In this document: positions 31,003 through 39,211 of the stretch, piece by piece
Layout of the letters: each line of letters opens with the position of its first letter
Position numbering within the stretch: the first letter of the stretch is position 1
Assembly (NCBI GenBank): GCA_023957155.1
Contig: JAMLHK010000005.1
Coordinates: 248,001-312,000 of the forward strand
Length of the DNA stretch: 64,000 bases
Direction: 5' to 3'
From: Chitinophagaceae bacterium
Lineage (GTDB): Bacteria > Bacteroidota > Bacteroidia > Chitinophagales > Chitinophagaceae
Program-made: the position numbers and the translations under genes
Notes under the pieces: generated by a model
Databases searched by the model: none
What the model was told of the DNA's origin: nothing
Seen by the model: the letters and a program-made list of their open reading frames with translations, nothing else

Positions 31003-32208
31003 TTATTTACTCTTATTAATACAGGAAGCTATAATTTTTCTCAATTCGGAAAAATTGCCGGCTCCGGCGCTACGTTCAACAATTTTACCATCAGGGTCTA
31101 TCAAAATAGAAGTGGGATAGACCGATATATTATACTGTTCGCATACATTATTCGTCTGAGTTTGATCAGCAAATAAGTGAGTCCAGCGCATCTGCTTATC
31201 TTTTATTAGCTGGTTCAGCCTGCTTATATTTTCTTTTCTATCGTAAGCGATACTAACCACTTTCAATTTACCTGAATATTGCCTGTTCAGCTTCACAAGA
31301 TCGGGGATAAGTTTTATACAGGGGCCGCACCACGATCCCCAAAAATCGAGTAATACAAAATTGCCTCTTAGGGATGACAGTGAAAAAGGTTGACCATTCA
31401 TTGTAAAACCATTGATGTTTTTTGCGAATAGCCCGGTTTGTATGCCGGAGGAAATATCGGTCAGCCCCTTTGAGATCACCCAGGCTGTATCAAAATAGGG
31501 GCTGATCTTGTAGACTTCGAATTCTTCACCGTCTATATAAAAAGGCTCATTTAATCTTTGAGGTGGTGTCGCATAGATATCCCTGGCTAATGTTGTATCG
31601 CCTTTATCAATATAAAACTGTGGTAAACGATTATATACATTCGAGACAATGGTTAAATGTTTTTTTGAGACATCAAAATGTCCTTTTCTAAAATAGGATA
31701 AATCTAAATTGAGATGCCATGTAGAGTCATCTGCTGTTTTATAATTATACCCACAAACATAAATGGACGGTTTAAAGAAAAAGGATGAAAGTCCCGGGTA
31801 TTTTATTTTAACCGGGGCGATAGAATCGCGTACTTTTTTATAAACTTCTTCCTGGCAGGAATTATCTGAGCCAAAAACATAGATGGTTTCACCTGTTAAA
31901 TCATTATCAAAGTTTGAATCAAAAATGACGATACGTTTCCGGTCTGCCCGCCTACCGTAAAGGATATGCAGATTGGGTAAACTAATGTCAATTGTACGTG
32001 TCCTTATTCTATAGTCTACAATATCGGAAGGGATATTTTTTAAGCGAATGCTTTGGTCGGAGGCGGAGGTGCCCATAGTTCTCCTGCCAAATATGCTTGA
32101 ATCAGCAATGACAGTAAATAAAGGTACCGCAACAGTATCTTGTTGCTGCGTAAAAGCCTTTTCTCCTGTTATCAGTGAAAAAACGAAGAAAAAATGTTTA
32201 AAATTCAT
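31003..32208 (-). CDS. TlpA-family thiol:disulfide oxidoreductase paralogue 1
   Basis: A 401-residue exported protein with an N-terminal signal (FFFVFSLITGEKAFTQ), about 230 residues of a beta-rich domain (KRIVIFDSNFDNDLTGE), and a C-terminal thioredoxin domain with FWGSWCGPCIKLIPDLVKLN (CGPC redox site near 285) and cis-Pro YPTSILIDPDGKIV. It is the last gene of a - strand island that also has paralogues at 33723 and 35014 with the same architecture. It probably handles disulfides of exported peptides, by analogy with ResA/TlpA. No substrate can be proved from sequence. Confidence 0.82.
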   Translation of the reverse strand: MNFKHFFFVFSLITGEKAFTQQQDTVAVPLFTVIADSSIFGRRTMGTSASDQSIRLKNIPSDIVDYRIRTRTIDISLPNLHILYGRRADRKRIVIFDSNFDNDLTGETIYVFGSDNSCQEEVYKKVRDSIAPVKIKYPGLSSFFFKPSIYVCGYNYKTADDSTWHLNLDLSYFRKGHFDVSKKHLTIVSNVYNRLPQFYIDKGDTTLARDIYATPPQRLNEPFYIDGEEFEVYKISPYFDTAWVISKGLTDISSGIQTGLFAKNINGFTMNGQPFSLSSLRGNFVLLDFWGSWCGPCIKLIPDLVKLNRQYSGKLKVVSIAYDRKENISRLNQLIKDKQMRWTHLFADQTQTNNVCEQYNISVYPTSILIDPDGKIVERSAGAGNFSELRKIIASCINKSK

Positions 32209-32237: not shown

Positions 32238-33443
32238 TTAATTCAGGAGCCAGTCAATTACGTTCAGTTTTTGGATACCGTCTATGTTTGTATTGTCAAA
32301 ATCCAGACTTAAAAGATACTTCGGATAATTGTCTTTGATGTTTTTAAATGCCGAAATTTCCCTTTTATAGGTTTTTTCGTCATTAATGGTAAAGGCAACC
32401 TGATAATATTCCCTTTCGTTATTGGGCTTTTGTACTACAAAATCAATTTCTCTGTCGTTGTTTTTTCCTGCATAAACTTTTCCGCCACGTCTTAAAAGTT
32501 CAAAATACACTACATTTTCGAGTTTGTGTCCTAAATCGGCATCGTATTTATTAGTTACTGTTATGTTTCTTAATCCCAAATCTACCAGATAATATTTTTC
32601 GTTGGTAGTAAGCAGTTCTTTGCCTTTAATGTCAAAACGCGGAGCAGGATACAGAATGTAGGATTTGGTCAAAAAGTCTAAATACTTGATAATGGTGTTG
32701 TGAGATATTTTTTTCTGCGAGTTTTTGTTGAGTTCCGTTGCAATATTAGTAGGTGAGATATATGAACCGATACTATCAAACACAAAGCTGATAACACGGT
32801 GCAGATTATGTATATTCCGAAGTTTATAGCGTTGTGCAATATCCTTTATAACAACTGTATCGTAAATGGATTGCAGCAGATAATCGTTTGCCAAACTTTC
32901 GTTGCTTTGGGCAAGTGTAACTGCTTCGGGAAAACTGCTTGCATTGATATATTTTCGAAAAAGGCGGTCAATATTTTTTTCTTCTTTGTATGCCAAAGTA
33001 TATTCTTTGAAAGAATACGGCTGTAGGTTTATGGCAATGTATCTGCCTGTGAGAAGTGTTGCCAGTTCGCTACTTAACAGATAAGCGTTTGAGCCTGTGA
33101 TATATAGATCAATATGTTTCTTCGTAAACAGTCCATTGATGAGTTTTTCAAAATCGTTGACCAATTGTACTTCGTCCAAAAAAACATAGTGTTTCTTGTT
33201 GTTTTTTACCCTTTTTATGATTTCGTCATAAAGTACAGTCCAATCGGTTAAGTGCAAATTTTCTCTTTCTTCAAAATTTAGAAAAATGATATTGCGGGGT
33301 AAAGTTCCGCTTGCTATCAGCTCATTTTTAAAGGCTTCCAAAAGCGTTGATTTGCCACTACGCCTTATGCCTGTAATAACCTTGATGATGTTTTGGTCTT
33401 TGATCTGCCGCAGTTTTTGAAGATATATTTCCCGTGGTATCAT
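32238..33443 (-). CDS. AAA-type ATPase with DUF4143 domain
   Basis: A 401-residue cytosolic protein. The N-terminal ATPase has Walker A TGIRRSGKSTLL (residues 25-36) and Walker B VFLDEVQLVNDFE, followed by ITGSNAYLLSSELATLLTGR. The C-terminal part (about 230-400) is DUF4143-like, with nuclease-type GKVYAGKNNDREIDFVVQ. Such ATPases are widespread in bacterial and archaeal accessory regions and their role is unclear. Here it interrupts a row of TlpA genes on the same strand, 29 bases before paralogue 1. Its own origin is probably independent of the TlpA cluster (inference). Confidence 0.85.
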   Translation of the reverse strand: MIPREIYLQKLRQIKDQNIIKVITGIRRSGKSTLLEAFKNELIASGTLPRNIIFLNFEERENLHLTDWTVLYDEIIKRVKNNKKHYVFLDEVQLVNDFEKLINGLFTKKHIDLYITGSNAYLLSSELATLLTGRYIAINLQPYSFKEYTLAYKEEKNIDRLFRKYINASSFPEAVTLAQSNESLANDYLLQSIYDTVVIKDIAQRYKLRNIHNLHRVISFVFDSIGSYISPTNIATELNKNSQKKISHNTIIKYLDFLTKSYILYPAPRFDIKGKELLTTNEKYYLVDLGLRNITVTNKYDADLGHKLENVVYFELLRRGGKVYAGKNNDREIDFVVQKPNNEREYYQVAFTINDEKTYKREISAFKNIKDNYPKYLLSLDFDNTNIDGIQKLNVIDWLLN

Positions 33444-33722: not shown

Positions 33723-34934
33723 TTAGTCGGGCAGTAGTGATTTTATCTTTTCTTTTAATTTGCCCAGGTCTTTAAGTCCATAACCCCTGTACACTATTTT
33801 GCCATTTGGGGCAATAAGAATGGTGGTAGGGTAATTTTTAACATGGTATTGAATAGATATATTATCAGTAAGCTCGCTGTCCGTAAAAAGATTGATCCAG
33901 TTCATTTTTCGGGATTGAATTATTTTTTTCAGTTTACCAATATTTCTTTTTTCATCGTATGCTACACTCACGATTTTTAATTTGTCCCGGTATTTTTCGT
34001 TAATTTTTACCATTTCAGGAATCTGTTCAAGGCAGGGGGCACACCAGCTTCCCCAAAAATCAATCATAACAAAATTACCCCGTAGTGAGGTTAAATCGAA
34101 GAGCTTATTATCAAGAGTCATTCCCTGCATGTTAAGTGCATACAGACCAGCCCGGGAACCGAATGCTGAATCAAATGGCCCGCTGCAAATTATGGTGATT
34201 GAATCAAATTCAGGAGATATATGAGATACAATGAACCTATTCTTATTAAGATAAGCGGGTTCGTTTAATTCGTAGGGCAAATCTGGCTGCTGATGTATTG
34301 AATAGGGAATATTCCTATCCTCAAAATAAAATAAGGGGGGATCTGTTAAGCCATTGGATAAAATCACATAGTCTCTTCCGTTAAAGTTAAATGCTCCTTT
34401 TCTATATTGAAATTTGTCTAAAGAAAGGTGCCAGACGGAGTCTTCAGGTCTTGTATATTTCAGATCTGAGTTAAATATTGAAGGCTTTAATGCAAGTGTT
34501 CTACCGTTGGACAGTTTGATTTCCACTGGATTAAGACCATCCATTATTTTTTTAGAAGAGTCTTTATTGGTTTTGACAGATTCCGGCAGTGTATATACCA
34601 TTTCATTTTTTAAATCGCCATCAAAATCAGAATCTAGTATAATGATATAATTTTTGAGAGAATCTATTCCGTAGAATATTTTTAAAGTAGGGGATATAGA
34701 GTCAAATATTCGCTCTTTTATTTTGAAATTAATGATATTACCGGGAGTATTTTTTAAAATGATTTTTTCTGAGGTTAAATAGGTTAACATGCTCTCAATA
34801 GGAAAGAAAGAGTAGTTGGGTTGGGATTTGCCTATATTAACTCCTATGGTATCCCTATTCTGTTGACAATAAGATATAGCGCTAAGCGAGAGGAAAAATA
34901 GCAGAAAAATACTGGAAATTGTAGAGGATTGCAT
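33723..34934 (-). CDS. TlpA-family thiol:disulfide oxidoreductase paralogue 2
   Basis: A 403-residue protein with signal SIFLLFFLSLSAISYCQ, an N-terminal domain related to paralogue 1 (IIILDSDFDGDLKNE against IVIFDSNFDNDLTGE), and a thioredoxin domain with DFWGSWCAPCLEQIPEMVK (CAPC near 280) and YPTTILIAPNGKI. Secreted or periplasmic. Its stop is followed by the 57-residue membrane ORF. The gene after it in transcription and the one before it (35014) are both on the - strand. Confidence 0.83.
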   Translation of the reverse strand: MQSSTISSIFLLFFLSLSAISYCQQNRDTIGVNIGKSQPNYSFFPIESMLTYLTSEKIILKNTPGNIINFKIKERIFDSISPTLKIFYGIDSLKNYIIILDSDFDGDLKNEMVYTLPESVKTNKDSSKKIMDGLNPVEIKLSNGRTLALKPSIFNSDLKYTRPEDSVWHLSLDKFQYRKGAFNFNGRDYVILSNGLTDPPLFYFEDRNIPYSIHQQPDLPYELNEPAYLNKNRFIVSHISPEFDSITIICSGPFDSAFGSRAGLYALNMQGMTLDNKLFDLTSLRGNFVMIDFWGSWCAPCLEQIPEMVKINEKYRDKLKIVSVAYDEKRNIGKLKKIIQSRKMNWINLFTDSELTDNISIQYHVKNYPTTILIAPNGKIVYRGYGLKDLGKLKEKIKSLLPD

Positions 34935-35013: not shown

Positions 35014-36189
35014 TTATTTGACATTCACTAAGACCGAATCTATTCTATTCAGGCTTTCTTTAGAATTTCCACGAACGACTATTTTACCTTTATCGTTTAT
35101 TAAAATAAAAGTTGGGAAAGTGTCTACTCTAAAAAACTCAACGGCTGAAGATGAATTACTGTTCTTCATATTCTCAAATATTTGCGGCCAAAATATTTTA
35201 TTCTTTTCTAAATATTTAATTACCTTTTCTTTGTTATCATCGTATGCAATGCCTAATATATTTAGATGTTCACTATGTTGGACATAGATTTTCTTTACGT
35301 CAGGAACTAACTTATGACAGGGGTTACACCACGTCCCCCAAAAATCTAAAAGAATATATCTATTCGCTGATGGTATACTTATTTTTTCCTTATCAATGGA
35401 TTCTATAATTATTGGGTCGGGTGTCAGTCCTTCTGAGATTCCGGACTGAATTTTTGCTGAATCCACTTTCGTCATAGTTAGGGTATCTCCTTCAAGGCTG
35501 ATGCTATTGAAAATATATCGTTCTTTATCTATGGTAAAGTTATCTCCAAGTTCATAGAAACTGATTTTTGAATTATTATCCTGTAATAGGGCAATACTTA
35601 TATCTCTTTGATTTTCTACAACGGAAGAAAGCCTATTATTTATAACAGCGATCGGGATATTACTCCAGGGTAGAAATCCATTTGAATATTCAAATGATTT
35701 TATCATTAAATAAAATTTATTTTCTATCTGTGAGTAGTATTTGAATGAAGTATGATAAGGATAAGCTTGAAATGTGAATTTTTTATCACTTCCCGGAATA
35801 ATAATTGTTGTATAAGGCAGGTCCTGGAGACTTTTCTTTTCAATTGGATAAGTCATCAGCACATCATCTGAAAAATCTAGATTAAAATTACTGTCTGCAA
35901 TTACAACAATACTATCAGATTTAAGTCCTATGAAAAAGAAAACCCGGAGTTTTTCCAGATTATTTACGGAATCTTTTTTCTTGTAATTAATGTCTACATA
36001 TTTTATGATATAATCCTGAATTTTTTGTGGTAGATTCTTGAATTTTTTTGCCGTGTCTATATTTGTTGGAGTTACAGAACCACTAAAAGGACCTATTCCC
36101 GGCTGCATCTGAAGAGGAAGATCAATAGTTTGAGATAAACTAAAGCAGAAGAGAAGCAAAAGGAAATTTAATATGGTCAGGAATTTCAT
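35014..36189 (-). CDS. TlpA-family thiol:disulfide oxidoreductase paralogue 3
   Basis: A 391-residue protein with signal LTILNFLLLLFCFSLSQ, N-terminal domain (IVVIADSNFNLDFSDDVLM), and a thioredoxin domain with LDFWGTWCNPCHKLVPDVKK. Here the active site reads CNPC. A cis-Pro loop (DTFPTFILINDKGKI) follows. It is directly downstream of the GG-leader peptide gene (132-base gap), so it is the nearest candidate for oxidising or isomerising that peptide. This is inference; the family also serves cytochrome and other exported substrates. Confidence 0.82.
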   Translation of the reverse strand: MKFLTILNFLLLLFCFSLSQTIDLPLQMQPGIGPFSGSVTPTNIDTAKKFKNLPQKIQDYIIKYVDINYKKKDSVNNLEKLRVFFFIGLKSDSIVVIADSNFNLDFSDDVLMTYPIEKKSLQDLPYTTIIIPGSDKKFTFQAYPYHTSFKYYSQIENKFYLMIKSFEYSNGFLPWSNIPIAVINNRLSSVVENQRDISIALLQDNNSKISFYELGDNFTIDKERYIFNSISLEGDTLTMTKVDSAKIQSGISEGLTPDPIIIESIDKEKISIPSANRYILLDFWGTWCNPCHKLVPDVKKIYVQHSEHLNILGIAYDDNKEKVIKYLEKNKIFWPQIFENMKNSNSSSAVEFFRVDTFPTFILINDKGKIVVRGNSKESLNRIDSVLVNVK

Positions 36190-36321: not shown

Positions 36322-36543
36322 TTAATAACAGTAGTTCTTGGGATCACCATCACATTGGACCCAATTACTCCCTTTGTTACAAACTCCCAAAGTACTTGAG
36401 CATTCGACGTATCCAGTGGAACAATTTGTGTGTGCTGTACACGTGCCATCACTGCCATCGCCTCCTGTAATTTTCTTTAATTGCTCTCTTGATAATAATT
36501 CAGTGCTTTCAAGATTTGAAAGACTTAATTTTAACTTTTTCAT
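36322..36543 (-). CDS. GG-leader cysteine-rich secreted peptide precursor
   Basis: A 73-residue precursor. Residues 1-28 form a double-glycine leader of the Bacteroidota type (MKKLKLSLSNLESTELLSRE, QLKKITGG), with cleavage expected after Gly28. The 45-residue core begins DGSDG and has six cysteines spaced C-x5-C-x6-C-x6-C-x8-C-x7-C and ends in Tyr. Families with such leaders are exported by C39-peptidase ABC transporters and often occur beside TlpA-type oxidoreductases, as here. No exporter is in the window. Function unknown. A core with a matching cysteine pattern is encoded at 38721-38861. Confidence 0.72.
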   Translation of the reverse strand: MKKLKLSLSNLESTELLSREQLKKITGGDGSDGTCTAHTNCSTGYVECSSTLGVCNKGSNWVQCDGDPKNYCY

Positions 36544-36644
36544 ACAACCAAATTTTGTTGTTTAAAAATGAATTTACAGTATAAAGTTCAAACAGCTCAG
36601 CGCACTATAAGTGTATCGAGAAAAAAATATGGATTTTCACAAAT

Positions 36645-36947
36645 TTAAAAAATAGCCACTTTTGAAAAGCAGAGCTTTTCTACCTGCTTGCTAATGATGG
36701 CGGTTTCTTCTCTTGACAGCACTTCCCCCCTGCTTTATAAACAAACATTTTACTATTTCTCCTTCTTCCTCATCGGGGCTGGTATACAAACTTTACGTAA
36801 TAAGTGTTATCGAATTTGGCAATAACCTGAAAGTTAGAAATGTCGTGTAAATCTTCTTTATAAAAAGTGTTGAGATACAGTTATACTCAGCACTTTATTA
36901 TAGAACATATCAATATGAACATCTTGGGTATATAAAGTTTCCATCAT
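36645..36947 (-). pseudogene. Decayed open frame between TlpA paralogue 4 and GG peptide
   Basis: Minus-strand pieces in three frames read METLYTQDVHIDMFYNKVLS, then DLHDISNFQVIAKFDNTYYV-KFVYQP, then DEEEGEIVKCLFIKQGG, then LSREETAIISKQVEKLCFSK to a stop at 36645. The shifts fall near 36860-36790 and at the G6 run at about 36724. Taken together they look like one ~95-residue protein with two or three frameshifts. It is otherwise gene-free in 36544-36973. Family not recognised. Confidence 0.4.
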
Positions 36948-36973
36948 CTTTTTTATATTTTCAACATCTGCTA

Positions 36974-38341
36974 TCAGTTTTGGCGTTTTGCCGAAAAAAG
37001 TAATTGGTCCAGAAGTGATTTTGTTTTTGCTGAAGAAGGTAACGGCGCAATTAATTCTCTTACTTTAAATTCGTCATCAATAAGTATTGATCTTGGAATT
37101 TCCTCAACGCGATAAGCTCCTAACTTTTGCCTGTCTACGATCAATTGTATTCCTTCAGGATTTGTTTTGGACAAATATTGCCGCCATCTTTCAATGTCTG
37201 TATCAATGGAAAGAGATATGAATGCAATCCGGTCATTATTTTTATAGATTTCTTTTAAACTGTTATAAGCGGGAAATTCTTCCAGGCATGGGCCGCACCA
37301 TGTTGCCCACAACTTTAAATAAATGATCTTTCCTTTATAGAAGGAGAGATATACAGCGTTGTTCCTGTCGTTAAATGACATGAAATCTACCGCAGGGTCA
37401 CCGTTTTTTAATTGATTTGCTTCCCGCATTGTATATAATAAGGTGTTCCTGTATTCGGGATCCTGTATCCGGCTAATTTCAGTTGTTAAGAAAATAGTGT
37501 CCACCTTATTGGTTGAGCTTTTGATTTTGTGTGAAACTGTAGTTGCATTTTCCCAGTCTTCCAGCGTTTTTAATTCCTCCCCGGTTGGATTCCCCTCTTT
37601 TTTGAGGTCGGATAGTATAGTCCGATAGACCGCGATTTTCAGGTATCTTTTGTTTACTATTCCTTTTGCGAACTGCCTGATATGCGGAACGCTTTCTTTT
37701 TCAAGCTCTGATTGGAATTGAGCTACGGAGTCACTGTTTAACTTATGCACATAAGTATAATAAAAAAGGATGCTTTTGAGACTATTAATCACATCAGCCT
37801 TAATTCTGACTTTTTCCATTTTTTTAAACCCGGCGTCATGTATACCGAAAGAATCTAAGAATTCTTCTTTGGATCTGGCAGCATTCAGTATGTACTCAAT
37901 TGTTTCGCTAATTGTTTTTCTGATATTATCACCAGCTTCCAGGAATGAACCTCCTTTAGGATACAGAGTAAATTTCAGGTATTCATTCTTCTTTGCATTT
38001 TTGCCGGTAAAAACAGCTTTTTCGGGATACCGGTAGTCAAGCGTCATCGTTAAACTATCGCCTGGCGAGAGGTATAAGATGTTTCTTCCGATCCTGAAAT
38101 AATTCGCATCCCTGATATAAAATGAAACTGCGAAGTTCCCGCTTGTGTCCGGCGTAAATGAGGTGACATCAGCTTTTTCCTTCAACTGTCCGAATTCAGA
38201 TATATCTTCAACCGATACCTCTCCTTCAAAATAAGAGACCGTTCCGTTCAAAAAAACATTGTGCTTCTGCTGCGCTCTTGTTGCTACAATTATTAGCGTA
38301 AACAACATTAACAGCCATGCACTTATATTGTACTTAAACAT
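36974..38341 (-). CDS. TlpA-family thiol:disulfide oxidoreductase paralogue 4, DUF4369-like
   Basis: About 455 residues from ATG 38341 (the frame opens earlier at 38425, but MFKYNISAWLLMLFTLIIVATRAQQ is a proper signal). The N-terminal part resembles DUF4369-like beta sandwiches (FLNGTVSYFEGEVS, LSPGDSLTMTLDY), then a helical region, then a thioredoxin domain with WATWCGPCLEEFPAYNSLK (CGPC near 360) and ISLSIDTDIERWRQYLS. It resembles Bacteroidota periplasmic thioredoxins more than paralogues 1-3 do. On the same strand as the peptide genes. Confidence 0.82.
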   Translation of the reverse strand: MFKYNISAWLLMLFTLIIVATRAQQKHNVFLNGTVSYFEGEVSVEDISEFGQLKEKADVTSFTPDTSGNFAVSFYIRDANYFRIGRNILYLSPGDSLTMTLDYRYPEKAVFTGKNAKKNEYLKFTLYPKGGSFLEAGDNIRKTISETIEYILNAARSKEEFLDSFGIHDAGFKKMEKVRIKADVINSLKSILFYYTYVHKLNSDSVAQFQSELEKESVPHIRQFAKGIVNKRYLKIAVYRTILSDLKKEGNPTGEELKTLEDWENATTVSHKIKSSTNKVDTIFLTTEISRIQDPEYRNTLLYTMREANQLKNGDPAVDFMSFNDRNNAVYLSFYKGKIIYLKLWATWCGPCLEEFPAYNSLKEIYKNNDRIAFISLSIDTDIERWRQYLSKTNPEGIQLIVDRQKLGAYRVEEIPRSILIDDEFKVRELIAPLPSSAKTKSLLDQLLFSAKRQN

Positions 38342-38720
38342 ATTACAAAGAAAAATAGAATAATAAATTTTAACCACATTGGTATTACCAAGAGAATCTT
38401 TCTTCTTACTTTTTTGTCTTGACACAAAAAAGTAACAAAAAAAGTCAAGGCTGCAGAAAAATAGCTAAAATTTACTGCATTCCACTACCGAAAACAAGTC
38501 TAAGGCCGGACTGTTGGTACTCTATTAAGCGAATCTATCCTTCAACTATGGTAAAAAACTGACCAGCGTTTTCAGTTTAGCGCTCCATTTCGTAAATTTC
38601 TTAACGCCATTTTTCTGAGGCCGGCCCTCTGAAACCATTTATGTGACTAATCTTTAGTATTCTAAAGAAAAAATATAAATATATTGGATGGCTATTGGTG
38701 CTTAGTCACCCAATATTACA
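38342..38720. other. AT-rich intergenic region with palindromic element
   Basis: 379 bases upstream of the paralogue 4 gene. It contains the pseudoknot-like element at 38406-38449 and a TGCAG...CTGCA hairpin just after it. No convincing gene. A 15-base string (CTAAAATTTACTGCA) occurs here near 38469 and again in the second peptide gene near 38831. Confidence 0.5.
38406..38449 (+). repeat. Stem-loop element with loop-complementary tail (pseudoknot-like), copy 2
   Basis: TTACTTTTTTGT (38406-38417) pairs with ACAAAAAAGTAA (38424-38435). The loop CTTGAC (38418-38423) is complementary to GTCAAG (38444-38449). Same design as 21885-21922, but the loop and its tail differ together. The orientation is opposite to the adjacent TlpA gene. 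Confidence 0.65.
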
Positions 38721-38861
38721 TTATCTACGAACATATGCAGTCCCATATATTTCGGGATTATTCCCACACGGGATTCCGTAGGTGCTACTGCAATAGTGTG
38801 TATATGAACAATTGCTATCGCGTTGGCACCTAAAATTTACTGCACTTCCAGACCCTCCCAT
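38721..38861 (-). CDS. Leaderless GG-type cysteine-rich peptide, overlapping upstream gene
   Basis: A 46-residue frame beginning MGGSGSAVNFRC and carrying four cysteines in C-x5-C-x5-C-x7-C. The third cysteine is followed by SST-x-G, as in the 36322 peptide, where the matching spacing is C-x5-C-x6-C-x6-C. The ATG overlaps the stop of the 116-residue gene by one base (TAATG), a normal translational-coupling arrangement. Upstream in frame, KKI precedes MGG, resembling the LKKITGG leader end, but a stop codon lies seven codons further up, so no complete leader exists. It is either a decayed precursor or a peptide translated without a leader. Not previously noted to my knowledge. Confidence 0.5.
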   Translation of the reverse strand: MGGSGSAVNFRCQRDSNCSYTHYCSSTYGIPCGNNPEIYGTAYVRR

Positions 38862-39211
38862 TATTTTCTTATATAATCTATGAAGTCTTTATCAACCTTA
38901 ATAAAATAGATGGCGGAATAGAGCGTATCATATCCTAAAGCTTTCATTTCTTTTTTTGAAGATGTTACGGTAATGCGTTTGCTTTTGTGTATCAAACTAT
39001 CCTGATGAAATTTTGGAAAAGGTATAGCGGTAGTTGGATCAAAATCATAAAGCAAAGAATCATTAATTACAAGCAGGTTATTGGTCCTGTACAAAGAGCC
39101 CGAACTTTTTTGGGTTTGGGGAATCCCGGGAAAATCATATTGTGCATAAATATGATTGCTTATGAAAAGCATCCCTACCATTATCCCAAAATTCCGAATT
39201 AAACTTTGCAT
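38861..39211 (-). CDS. Secreted hypothetical protein
   Basis: A 116-residue protein with signal peptide (MQSLIRNFGIMVGMLFISNH, then IYAQ) and a polar mature part ending DFIDYIRK. No known family. Its stop overlaps the start of the Cys-rich peptide by one base. It is the most upstream gene of the island on the - strand. Confidence 0.5.
   Translation of the reverse strand: MQSLIRNFGIMVGMLFISNHIYAQYDFPGIPQTQKSSGSLYRTNNLLVINDSLLYDFDPTTAIPFPKFHQDSLIHKSKRITVTSSKKEMKALGYDTLYSAIYFIKVDKDFIDYIRK

What the first reader, a model, noticed from the sequence alone, without database searches (positions are those of the whole stretch)
36322..38861. Two cysteine-rich peptides with a shared C-x5-C-x5/6-C-SST-x-G pattern
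The 36322 precursor has a canonical GG leader and a six-cysteine core. The 38721 peptide, hidden in the gap and below normal annotation size, has the same first three cysteines and the same SST-x-G block before the fourth (spacings C-x5-C-x6-C-x6-C against C-x5-C-x5-C-x7-C). Both follow a Gly-Gly and short Gly/Ser spacer. The shared spacing in different sequence contexts argues for one peptide family with conserved disulfides.
Basis: partly seen in the sequence, partly recalled or inferred. Interest (0 to 1): 0.85.

Follow-up and report, generated by a model that had tools for sequence, protein, structure and literature searches.

The report
Disulfide peptide with TlpA partner genes
The stretch encodes one intact exported six-cysteine mini-protein and probably the remains of a second, each beside a gene for a disulfide-handling enzyme, a pairing that recurs, often in tandem arrays, in related bacteria.

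Summary
In detail: pep1 (36322-36543, -) is a 73-aa precursor with a Gly-Gly leader and six core cysteines; pep2 (38721-38861, -) is a 46-aa frame with the stated spacing. The "one family" reading is half right. pep1's core recurs, cysteines included, in four further peptides of three genomes; pep2 does not fit that core significantly, has four cysteines, and keeps only a leader tail after two stops: most likely a truncated remnant.

The stronger finding is the setting. pep1 is followed after 132 bp by a TlpA-like oxidoreductase gene; pep2 lies beside another. Of 80 unique leader peptides (pep1 included), 60 have a same-strand TlpA gene within 600 bp, often in tandem arrays, with a C39-like/VKOR/thioredoxin fusion, C39 exporter and HlyD often nearby. 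Cores vary greatly, yet 93 of 101 hold an even, non-zero number of cysteines, and core similarity tracks partner-TlpA similarity. The plan resembles bacteroidetocin clusters, with longer leader, more cysteines and arrays. The own genome (88% complete) shows no C39 domain or VKOR. Antagonism or signalling is inferred, not shown.

The parts
36322..36543 (-). pep1: GG-leader precursor, 73 aa, six core cysteines
   Evidence: ORF; leader HMM hit E 6.9e-15, its own leader being one of the seeds; weak TIGR04149 and NF047798 matches below curated cut-offs; core homologues
36460..36543 (-). pep1 leader (residues 1-28, ends ITGG)
   Evidence: leader conserved in relatives
36322..36459 (-). pep1 core, six cysteines, GTCT..C..G..ECSSTxGxC...CDG...C
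   Evidence: four homologous cores in three other genomes
35014..36189 (-). TlpA-like thioredoxin protein (391 aa, WCNPC), 132 bp downstream of pep1: its cassette partner
33723..34934 (-). second TlpA-like protein (403 aa), 79 bp behind the first, no peptide directly before it
   Evidence: Pfam Thioredoxin_8; spacing
31003..32208 (-). third TlpA-like protein (401 aa); 45.6% identical to the TlpA beside the pep1-type peptide of a congener (L259)
   Evidence: Pfam; blastp
36974..38341 (-). fourth, different TlpA-like protein, downstream of pep2 (first in-frame ATG at 38341; the 483-aa ORF runs to 38425 from a GTG)
   Evidence: Pfam; ATG position; relatives with E 3e-85, 8.8e-77 (L123) and 4.9e-103 (L124)
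38721..38861 (-). pep2: 46-aa, four-cysteine frame, probable truncated cassette peptide
   Evidence: ORF; similarity to pep1
38862..38888 (-). in-frame remnant of a leader tail (RLHRLYKKI before MGG), preceded by TGA TAA
   Evidence: three-frame translation
38861..39211 (-). 116-aa ORF with an N-terminal hydrophobic, signal-like stretch (by eye), overlapping the pep2 start (TAATG); no supported homologue

Best explanation
pep1 is the precursor of a small exported protein with three disulfides. Its 28-residue leader should be cut after Gly-Gly by a C39 exporter and the core oxidised in the cell envelope; the TlpA-like protein encoded right behind it is its dedicated disulfide partner (oxidase, isomerase or reductase). 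pep1 and its TlpA form one cassette of a system found, often as tandem arrays, in Chitinophagaceae and, in fewer examined loci, in other Bacteroidota, where a C39-like/VKOR/thioredoxin fusion (probable source of disulfides), a C39 ABC exporter and HlyD complete the set. pep2 is most likely the truncated remnant of a second cassette whose TlpA (36974-38341) survives. The mature peptides probably act outside the cell, most likely against competing bacteria. Shown by computation: the genes, the cassette architecture, the cysteine parity, the core-TlpA correlation. Inferred: cleavage, disulfides, partner role of TlpA, antagonism, decay of pep2.
For: 60 of 80 unique leader peptides in peptide-selected loci (own locus included) have a same-strand TlpA gene within 600 bp downstream, 0 of 80 an opposite-strand one within 600 bp; 20 control regions that I placed at arbitrary offsets in the same contigs (369 kb) hold 0 leader peptides and 1 TlpA. 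Cores: 93 even, 7 odd, 1 without cysteine; 66 of 101 have exactly six. In 1500 sampled pairs leaders are 43% identical, cores 20%. Core similarity follows partner-TlpA similarity between genomes: r = 0.40 over 2829 pairs of 77 cassettes, 0.30 over 2138 pairs of 67 cassettes with close pairs removed, reached by 0 of 2000 free and 0 of 2000 within-genome permutations. VKOR fusion in 22 of 39 peptide loci versus 0 of 20 controls; C39 exporter 18 of 39 versus 1 of 20 (one of the 18, L084, is a weak fragment that also matches the fusion). A complete annotated operon lies on plasmid pEMTOL01 of Emticicia oligotrophica.
Against: The window's own genome shows no C39 domain, no VKOR and only this one leader peptide; it is 88% complete, so the exporter may be missing from the assembly or the cassette may be an orphan. 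20 of 80 peptides lack a close TlpA (one of them at a contig end), and 68 of 80 named loci found through TlpA hold no leader peptide, so most such TlpA genes are not in cassettes. Co-inheritance of adjacent genes alone could give the core-TlpA correlation, and its rank form is weaker (0.23 and 0.17; not tested by permutation). No disulfide, cleavage or activity has been measured; the pep1 model is uninformative (pLDDT 44.5).
Confidence: 0.68

Rival explanations
1. One reading: pep1 and pep2 are two working members of one peptide family with shared disulfides, pep2 being made from its own ATG, perhaps coupled to the overlapping 116-aa frame.
For: pep2's frame is the second-best of 1346 against pep1; core p 0.004 by free shuffle; TAATG overlap with the 116-aa ORF.
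Against: pep2 fits the five-member pep1 core profile not significantly better than shuffles; no full leader, two stops just upstream; four cysteines where 66 of 101 have six; no convincing homologue.
Confidence: 0.13
2. The TlpA protein is not a folding helper but the producer's protection or receptor: it reduces or binds its own exported peptide.
For: One TlpA per peptide in most cassettes, with correlated divergence; the N-terminal part tracks the core at least as well as the thioredoxin part (r 0.28 against 0.21).
Against: In bacteroidetocin clusters deleting the thiol oxidoreductase attenuated toxin activity and expressing it did not protect (PMC6671954, passages).
Confidence: 0.22
3. The peptides are signals rather than weapons.
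For: A histidine kinase and LytTR regulator precede the Emticicia pEMTOL01 operon; small ORFs resembling helix-turn-helix regulators (by eye; no Pfam match) in 7 of 39 loci.
Against: Eight cassettes with unlike cores on one contig (L076 and L123) suit an arsenal better than one signal; no two-component system was looked for beside the window's cassette.
Confidence: 0.15
4. pep2 is a chance open frame.
For: Short, unique, no convincing homologue.
Against: KKI-GG-x-GS followed by spaced cysteines, 380 bp upstream of a TlpA gene; alignment score 65 against 40 for the next frame.
Confidence: 0.1
5. pep1 is a radical-SAM-modified RiPP of the TIGR04149 kind.
For: Leader resembles TIGR04149 (18.5 bits).
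Against: Below that model's curated cut-off of 25; of the 12 recurrent neighbour families listed none was recognised as radical SAM, but only some were profiled and no radical SAM profile was run.
Confidence: 0.04

Closest known systems
Bacteroidetocins (class IIf bacteriocins of Bacteroidetes; PMC6671954, passages seen)
   Same: GG-leader small cysteine peptides; cluster with a thiol oxidoreductase, a multi-spanning membrane protein and a C39-type ABC exporter; Bacteroidetes.
   Different: Leader 28 residues in pep1, not 15-16; mostly six cysteines, where bacteroidetocins A and B have four; hypervariable cores; repeated peptide-TlpA cassettes in arrays; membrane partner in relatives is a C39-like/VKOR/thioredoxin fusion (whether the five-span bacteroidetocin protein is the same was not tested).
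NCBIfam leader families TIGR04149, NF047798 (bacteriocin-like protein) and NF047792 (CCPGW putative bacteriocin)
   Same: At E <= 0.01, 35, 31 and 8 of 97 peptides scanned match: the leader type is catalogued.
   Different: pep1 is below the curated cut-offs; the models say nothing of the TlpA/VKOR context.
TlpA/ResA-like thiol-disulfide oxidoreductases
   Different: An N-terminal mostly beta part of about 250 residues; pairing with a peptide gene.
VKOR disulfide generators
   Same: Relatives' fusion protein has VKOR and Thioredoxin_4 domains.
   Different: Carries an N-terminal C39-like domain; 0 of 27 full-length copies show the exporter's catalytic cysteine motif.

Membership tests
pep1-type core family (defined here) | six cysteines with C-[ST]-S-x-x-G-x-C | tested here: met
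   pep1 and four others in three other genomes, 58.8-73.4 bits; all five were used to build the profile, so the scores are by construction; the next of 8504 small ORFs scores 11.2 bits
pep1-type core family, for pep2 | fit to core profile above shuffles | tested here: not met
   3.6 bits; 416 of 5000 free and 858 of 5000 cysteine-fixed shuffles reach it
GG-leader peptide-TlpA cassette | leader peptide followed by a same-strand TlpA gene within 600 bp | tested here: met
   pep1: 132 bp. pep2: 380 bp, but no full leader
Bacteroidetocins | leader of 15-16 residues ending in GG | tested here: not met
   pep1 leader is 28 residues; the family's value is from PMC6671954
Bacteroidetocins | C39-type ABC exporter in the cluster | tested here: not met
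   no C39 match in the own genome, window included, 88% complete; met in 17-18 of 39 related peptide loci
Bacteroidetocins | five-span membrane protein in the cluster | not tested
   that protein's sequence was not compared; VKOR was not found in the own genome
Bacteroidetocins | thiol oxidoreductase in the cluster | tested here: met
   TlpA at 35014-36189; in most, not all, bacteroidetocin regions
Bacteroidetocins | sequence similarity to bacteroidetocin A or B; killing of Bacteroidales | not tested
   no bacteroidetocin sequence was compared; killing needs experiment
TIGR04149 rSAM-modified RiPP | score over curated cut-off 25 | tested here: not met
   18.5 bits
NF047798 bacteriocin-like protein | score over curated cut-off 23.5 | tested here: not met
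   19.3 bits
TlpA/ResA-like oxidoreductase (35014-36189) | thioredoxin fold with WCxxC | tested here: met
   Pfam Thioredoxin_8 52.2 bits; WCNPC; structure matches
Inhibitor-cystine-knot-like frameworks | C-C-CC-C-C spacing | tested here: not met
   pep1 has no CC; the spacing is met by 6 of 66 six-cysteine cores

The most novel reading that the evidence does not exclude
Bacteroidota carry a dedicated factory for diversified disulfide mini-proteins: arrays of unlike six-cysteine cores behind one conserved leader, each paired with its own specifically matched TlpA partner, oxidised by a VKOR fusion whose inactive C39-like domain reads the Gly-Gly leader. Some cores independently reached the cystine-knot spacing known from animal toxins. 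The window holds a shrinking copy of such an array.
Probability: 0.35. Interest if true: 0.83.

Novelty: new variant of a known kind. Interest (0 to 1): 0.62.

Why it matters
Bacteroides are said to lack the general disulfide machinery (PMC6671954, passage), so how Bacteroidota make disulfide-rich exported peptides is open. This system offers named, testable parts: a TlpA beside each peptide, a VKOR fusion with a candidate leader-reading domain, and an exporter. If the cores fold as the cysteine parity suggests, it would also be a natural library of three-disulfide mini-proteins; on the Emticicia plasmids they are annotated only as hypothetical proteins.

Tried and rejected
Nucleotide alignment of the two peptide genes gave only a short hit outside the leader region. 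A full leader for pep2 was sought in all three frames upstream and not found. pep2 homologues: 294 genomes, 154 with a hit at E 1 or better, as expected by chance; best other E 0.006. The 116-aa ORF: 195 genomes, three weak hits besides itself (E 0.007-0.009); the one I read lies in a 552-aa frame and covers 44 residues of the query. pep1 structure model unusable. pep1 core against solved structures: no match at E 10. Two relatives' cores gave weak matches to cystine-knot toxins and tachystatin (best E 0.012 and 0.018), not evidence of kinship. The N-terminal part of TlpA was not modelled alone, so nothing is said about its fold. A palindrome pattern first typed with a wrong length found nothing and was repeated correctly. 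Literature: ten searches in the PMC open library; no listed title or abstract start described peptide-TlpA arrays or a VKOR fusion with such peptides. Most subscription papers are not in that library. Of papers, passages of PMC6671954 and PMC10352776 were seen; the others only as search listings.
Full report
Observation. pep1 is a 73-aa frame with a 28-residue leader ending in ITGG and six core cysteines. pep2 is a 46-aa frame, MGGSGSAVNF followed by C-x5-C-x5-C-x7-C. Among 1346 stop-to-stop frames of the window only these two carry the cysteine pattern, two frames (these) carry the CSST-x-G block, and the pep2 frame is the second best match to pep1 (65 against 40 for the next). The alignment runs into the in-frame residues KKI just before pep2's ATG, which match the end of pep1's leader; nine codons before that ATG stand TGA and TAA. 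So pep2 has at most the tail of a leader.

pep1 has relatives. A search of 294 genomes of the same family with pep1 found matches at E 0.1 or better in 33, the own genome included; the convincing ones share the leader and mostly differ in the core, and several weak ones look like chance matches, being in long frames or holding stops. Four peptides share the core too: two on one contig of G040 (L072), one of G290 (L076) and one of Chitinophagaceae bacterium isolate SJ21 (L179), which belongs to the window's own genus (a stretch of its contig is identical to L259 of G395). They share G-[TS]-C-[TS]...C..G..x-C-[ST]-S-x-x-G-x-C...C-D...C. Three of the four have a TlpA gene directly behind; the first of the two G040 peptides is followed by a VKOR fusion instead. 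A profile search of 394 genomes with three of these peptides found strong core matches only in the three genomes it was built from, a second G040 copy included; the other hits (39 genomes in all at E 0.05) score far lower.

pep2 does not join this core. Its score against the five-member profile is reached by 416 of 5000 free shuffles; it does better against a second core type, C-x5-C-x5-C-x(5-9)-C (15 of 5000 free), though much of that lies in the cysteines (264 of 5000 with cysteines fixed). One hint after the fact: of 101 unique leader peptides one has pep2's exact spacing x5-x5-x7, and it lies beside a TlpA closely related to the one beside pep2; the sequence similarity of these two cores is low (0.11; pep1 is pep2's nearest at 0.22 when truncated peptides are set aside). 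With four cysteines, no full leader and no convincing homologue, pep2 is best read as the remnant of a cassette peptide. Broken peptides are seen elsewhere: in L261 leader and core lie in different frames, as do two parts of one core in L123; sequencing error cannot be excluded.

The cassette. pep1 is followed by a TlpA-like gene after 132 bp, then a second TlpA, an ATPase gene and a third TlpA; pep2 is followed by a fourth. I fetched 46 loci picked because they hold a pep1- or profile match, the own locus among them, and 20 control regions placed at arbitrary offsets in the same contigs. A leader profile (seeded with leaders of these peptides) gave 84 hits in the test loci (80 unique) and 0 in controls; TlpA: 88 in 692 kb (two loci overlap) against 1 in 369 kb. 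Of the 80 unique peptides, 60 have a same-strand TlpA within 600 bp downstream, one more is at a contig end, and none has an opposite-strand TlpA within 600 bp; 28 of 39 loci hold at least one cassette. Median gap among 77 cassettes, named loci and pep2 included, is 77 bp. Arrays recur; on one contig of G290, L123 shows seven cassettes and the overlapping L076 one more.

Cores are built for disulfides. Of 101 unique peptides, core cysteine numbers are even and non-zero in 93, odd in 7, zero in one; 66 have exactly six. In 1500 sampled pairs leaders are 43% identical on average, cores 20%. Six of 66 six-cysteine cores have a cystine-knot-like C-C-CC-C-C spacing against 0.4 expected by shuffling; I wrote that pattern after seeing some examples.

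Pairing. Between genomes, core similarity correlates with partner-TlpA similarity (r = 0.40; 0.30 with close pairs removed). None of 2000 permutations reached it, also when peptides were shuffled only among cassettes of one genome. The rank correlation is weaker (0.23 and 0.17). The N-terminal part of TlpA (0.28) and the thioredoxin part (0.21) both show it. Adjacent genes are inherited together, so this shows that cassettes travel as units; it fits specific partners without proving them.

The rest of the machine. Near the peptides of relatives lies a protein of about 545 aa with a C39-like domain, VKOR and a thioredoxin domain (Pfam): in 22 of 39 peptide loci against 0 of 20 controls; a C39 ABC exporter in 18 of 39 against 1 of 20 (one of the 18 is doubtful); HlyD in 14 of 39 against at most 1 of 20. 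None of 27 full-length fusions has the exporter's catalytic cysteine motif, against 21 of 23 full-length exporters. In 80 named loci found through TlpA, 12 hold a leader-profile hit (two of them poor: L180 is weak and not beside TlpA, L203 has no cysteine); of these 12, 6 have the fusion and 8 the exporter, against 1 and 0 of the other 68. They include Mucilaginibacter, Flavobacterium, Dyadobacter and Dysgonomonas. So most TlpA loci of that search are not cassettes. Among plasmids, 8 records match the fusion. Emticicia oligotrophica pEMTOL01 (typed conjugative) has kinase, LytTR regulator, VKOR fusion, two GG peptides, TlpA, C39 exporter, HlyD and TolC in a row; pEMTOL02 and plasmids of Hymenobacter monticola, Spirosoma oryzicola and Parabacteroides distasonis have parts of the set. 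I opened six of the eight.

The window's own genome. It shows one leader peptide, no C39 domain and no VKOR. In its genus, 5 of 12 genomes have a clear leader peptide (E below 1e-10); of the four besides the own, all four have C39 and three have VKOR; one genome without leader peptide has C39 too. The own assembly is 88% complete. The array sits between an ABC-F-type gene and a MutS-like gene (Pfam; the name ABC-F is mine). In the closest relative by that MutS-like protein (G310) the slot holds other genes, while in G359 a TlpA and a broken peptide lie beside the same ABC-F-type gene. I read the window's array as a shrinking or orphan copy, unless the exporter is in the missing 12%.

What it works like. 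Bacteroidetocins have the closest plan: GG leader, cysteine peptide, thiol oxidoreductase, membrane protein, C39-type exporter; deleting the oxidoreductase or the membrane protein attenuated activity and neither protected (PMC6671954, passages). Leader length and own-genome exporter fail as membership tests; sequence kinship was not tested. The leader type itself is catalogued (TIGR04149, NF047798, NF047792). Hence new variant of a known kind.

Noticed in passing
window 38406-38435: Near-perfect palindrome TTACTTTTTTGTCTTGACACAAAAAAGTAA between pep2 and its TlpA; the only copy found in the own genome at up to 2 mismatches.
   Followed up: partly
window 32238-33443: AAA_14/DUF4143 ATPase gene among the TlpA genes.
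   Followed up: no
L261 7779-8036; L123 8973-9197: Relatives' peptides with leader and core, or two parts of the core, in different frames: decay or sequencing error.
   Followed up: partly
L069 8631-8855, L083 11904-12131, L124 7648-7848, L132 9124-9309 and 9300-9512, L139 8905-9084: Cores with cystine-knot-like spacing; among 97 peptides scanned, single weak Pfam hits to animal toxin and tachystatin families.
   Followed up: partly
L067, L069, L070, L071, L075, L080, L085, L127: Two recurrent protein clusters beside peptide loci; one member of each matches a glycosyltransferase family in Pfam (one match below its cut-off). Possible glycosylation of peptides.
   Followed up: no
L288 13457-13645: Annotated start of an Emticicia peptide (EMTOL_RS20880) clips its leader to MKKIKGG; the in-frame leader begins 51 bases upstream.
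   Followed up: yes
L275 11661-15957: In the closest relative the array's slot between the ABC-F-type and MutS-like genes holds unrelated genes.
   Followed up: yes
L078 663-995 and similar: ORFs of about 110 aa, resembling small helix-turn-helix regulators by eye, in 7 of 39 peptide loci; no Pfam match for the one scanned.
   Followed up: no
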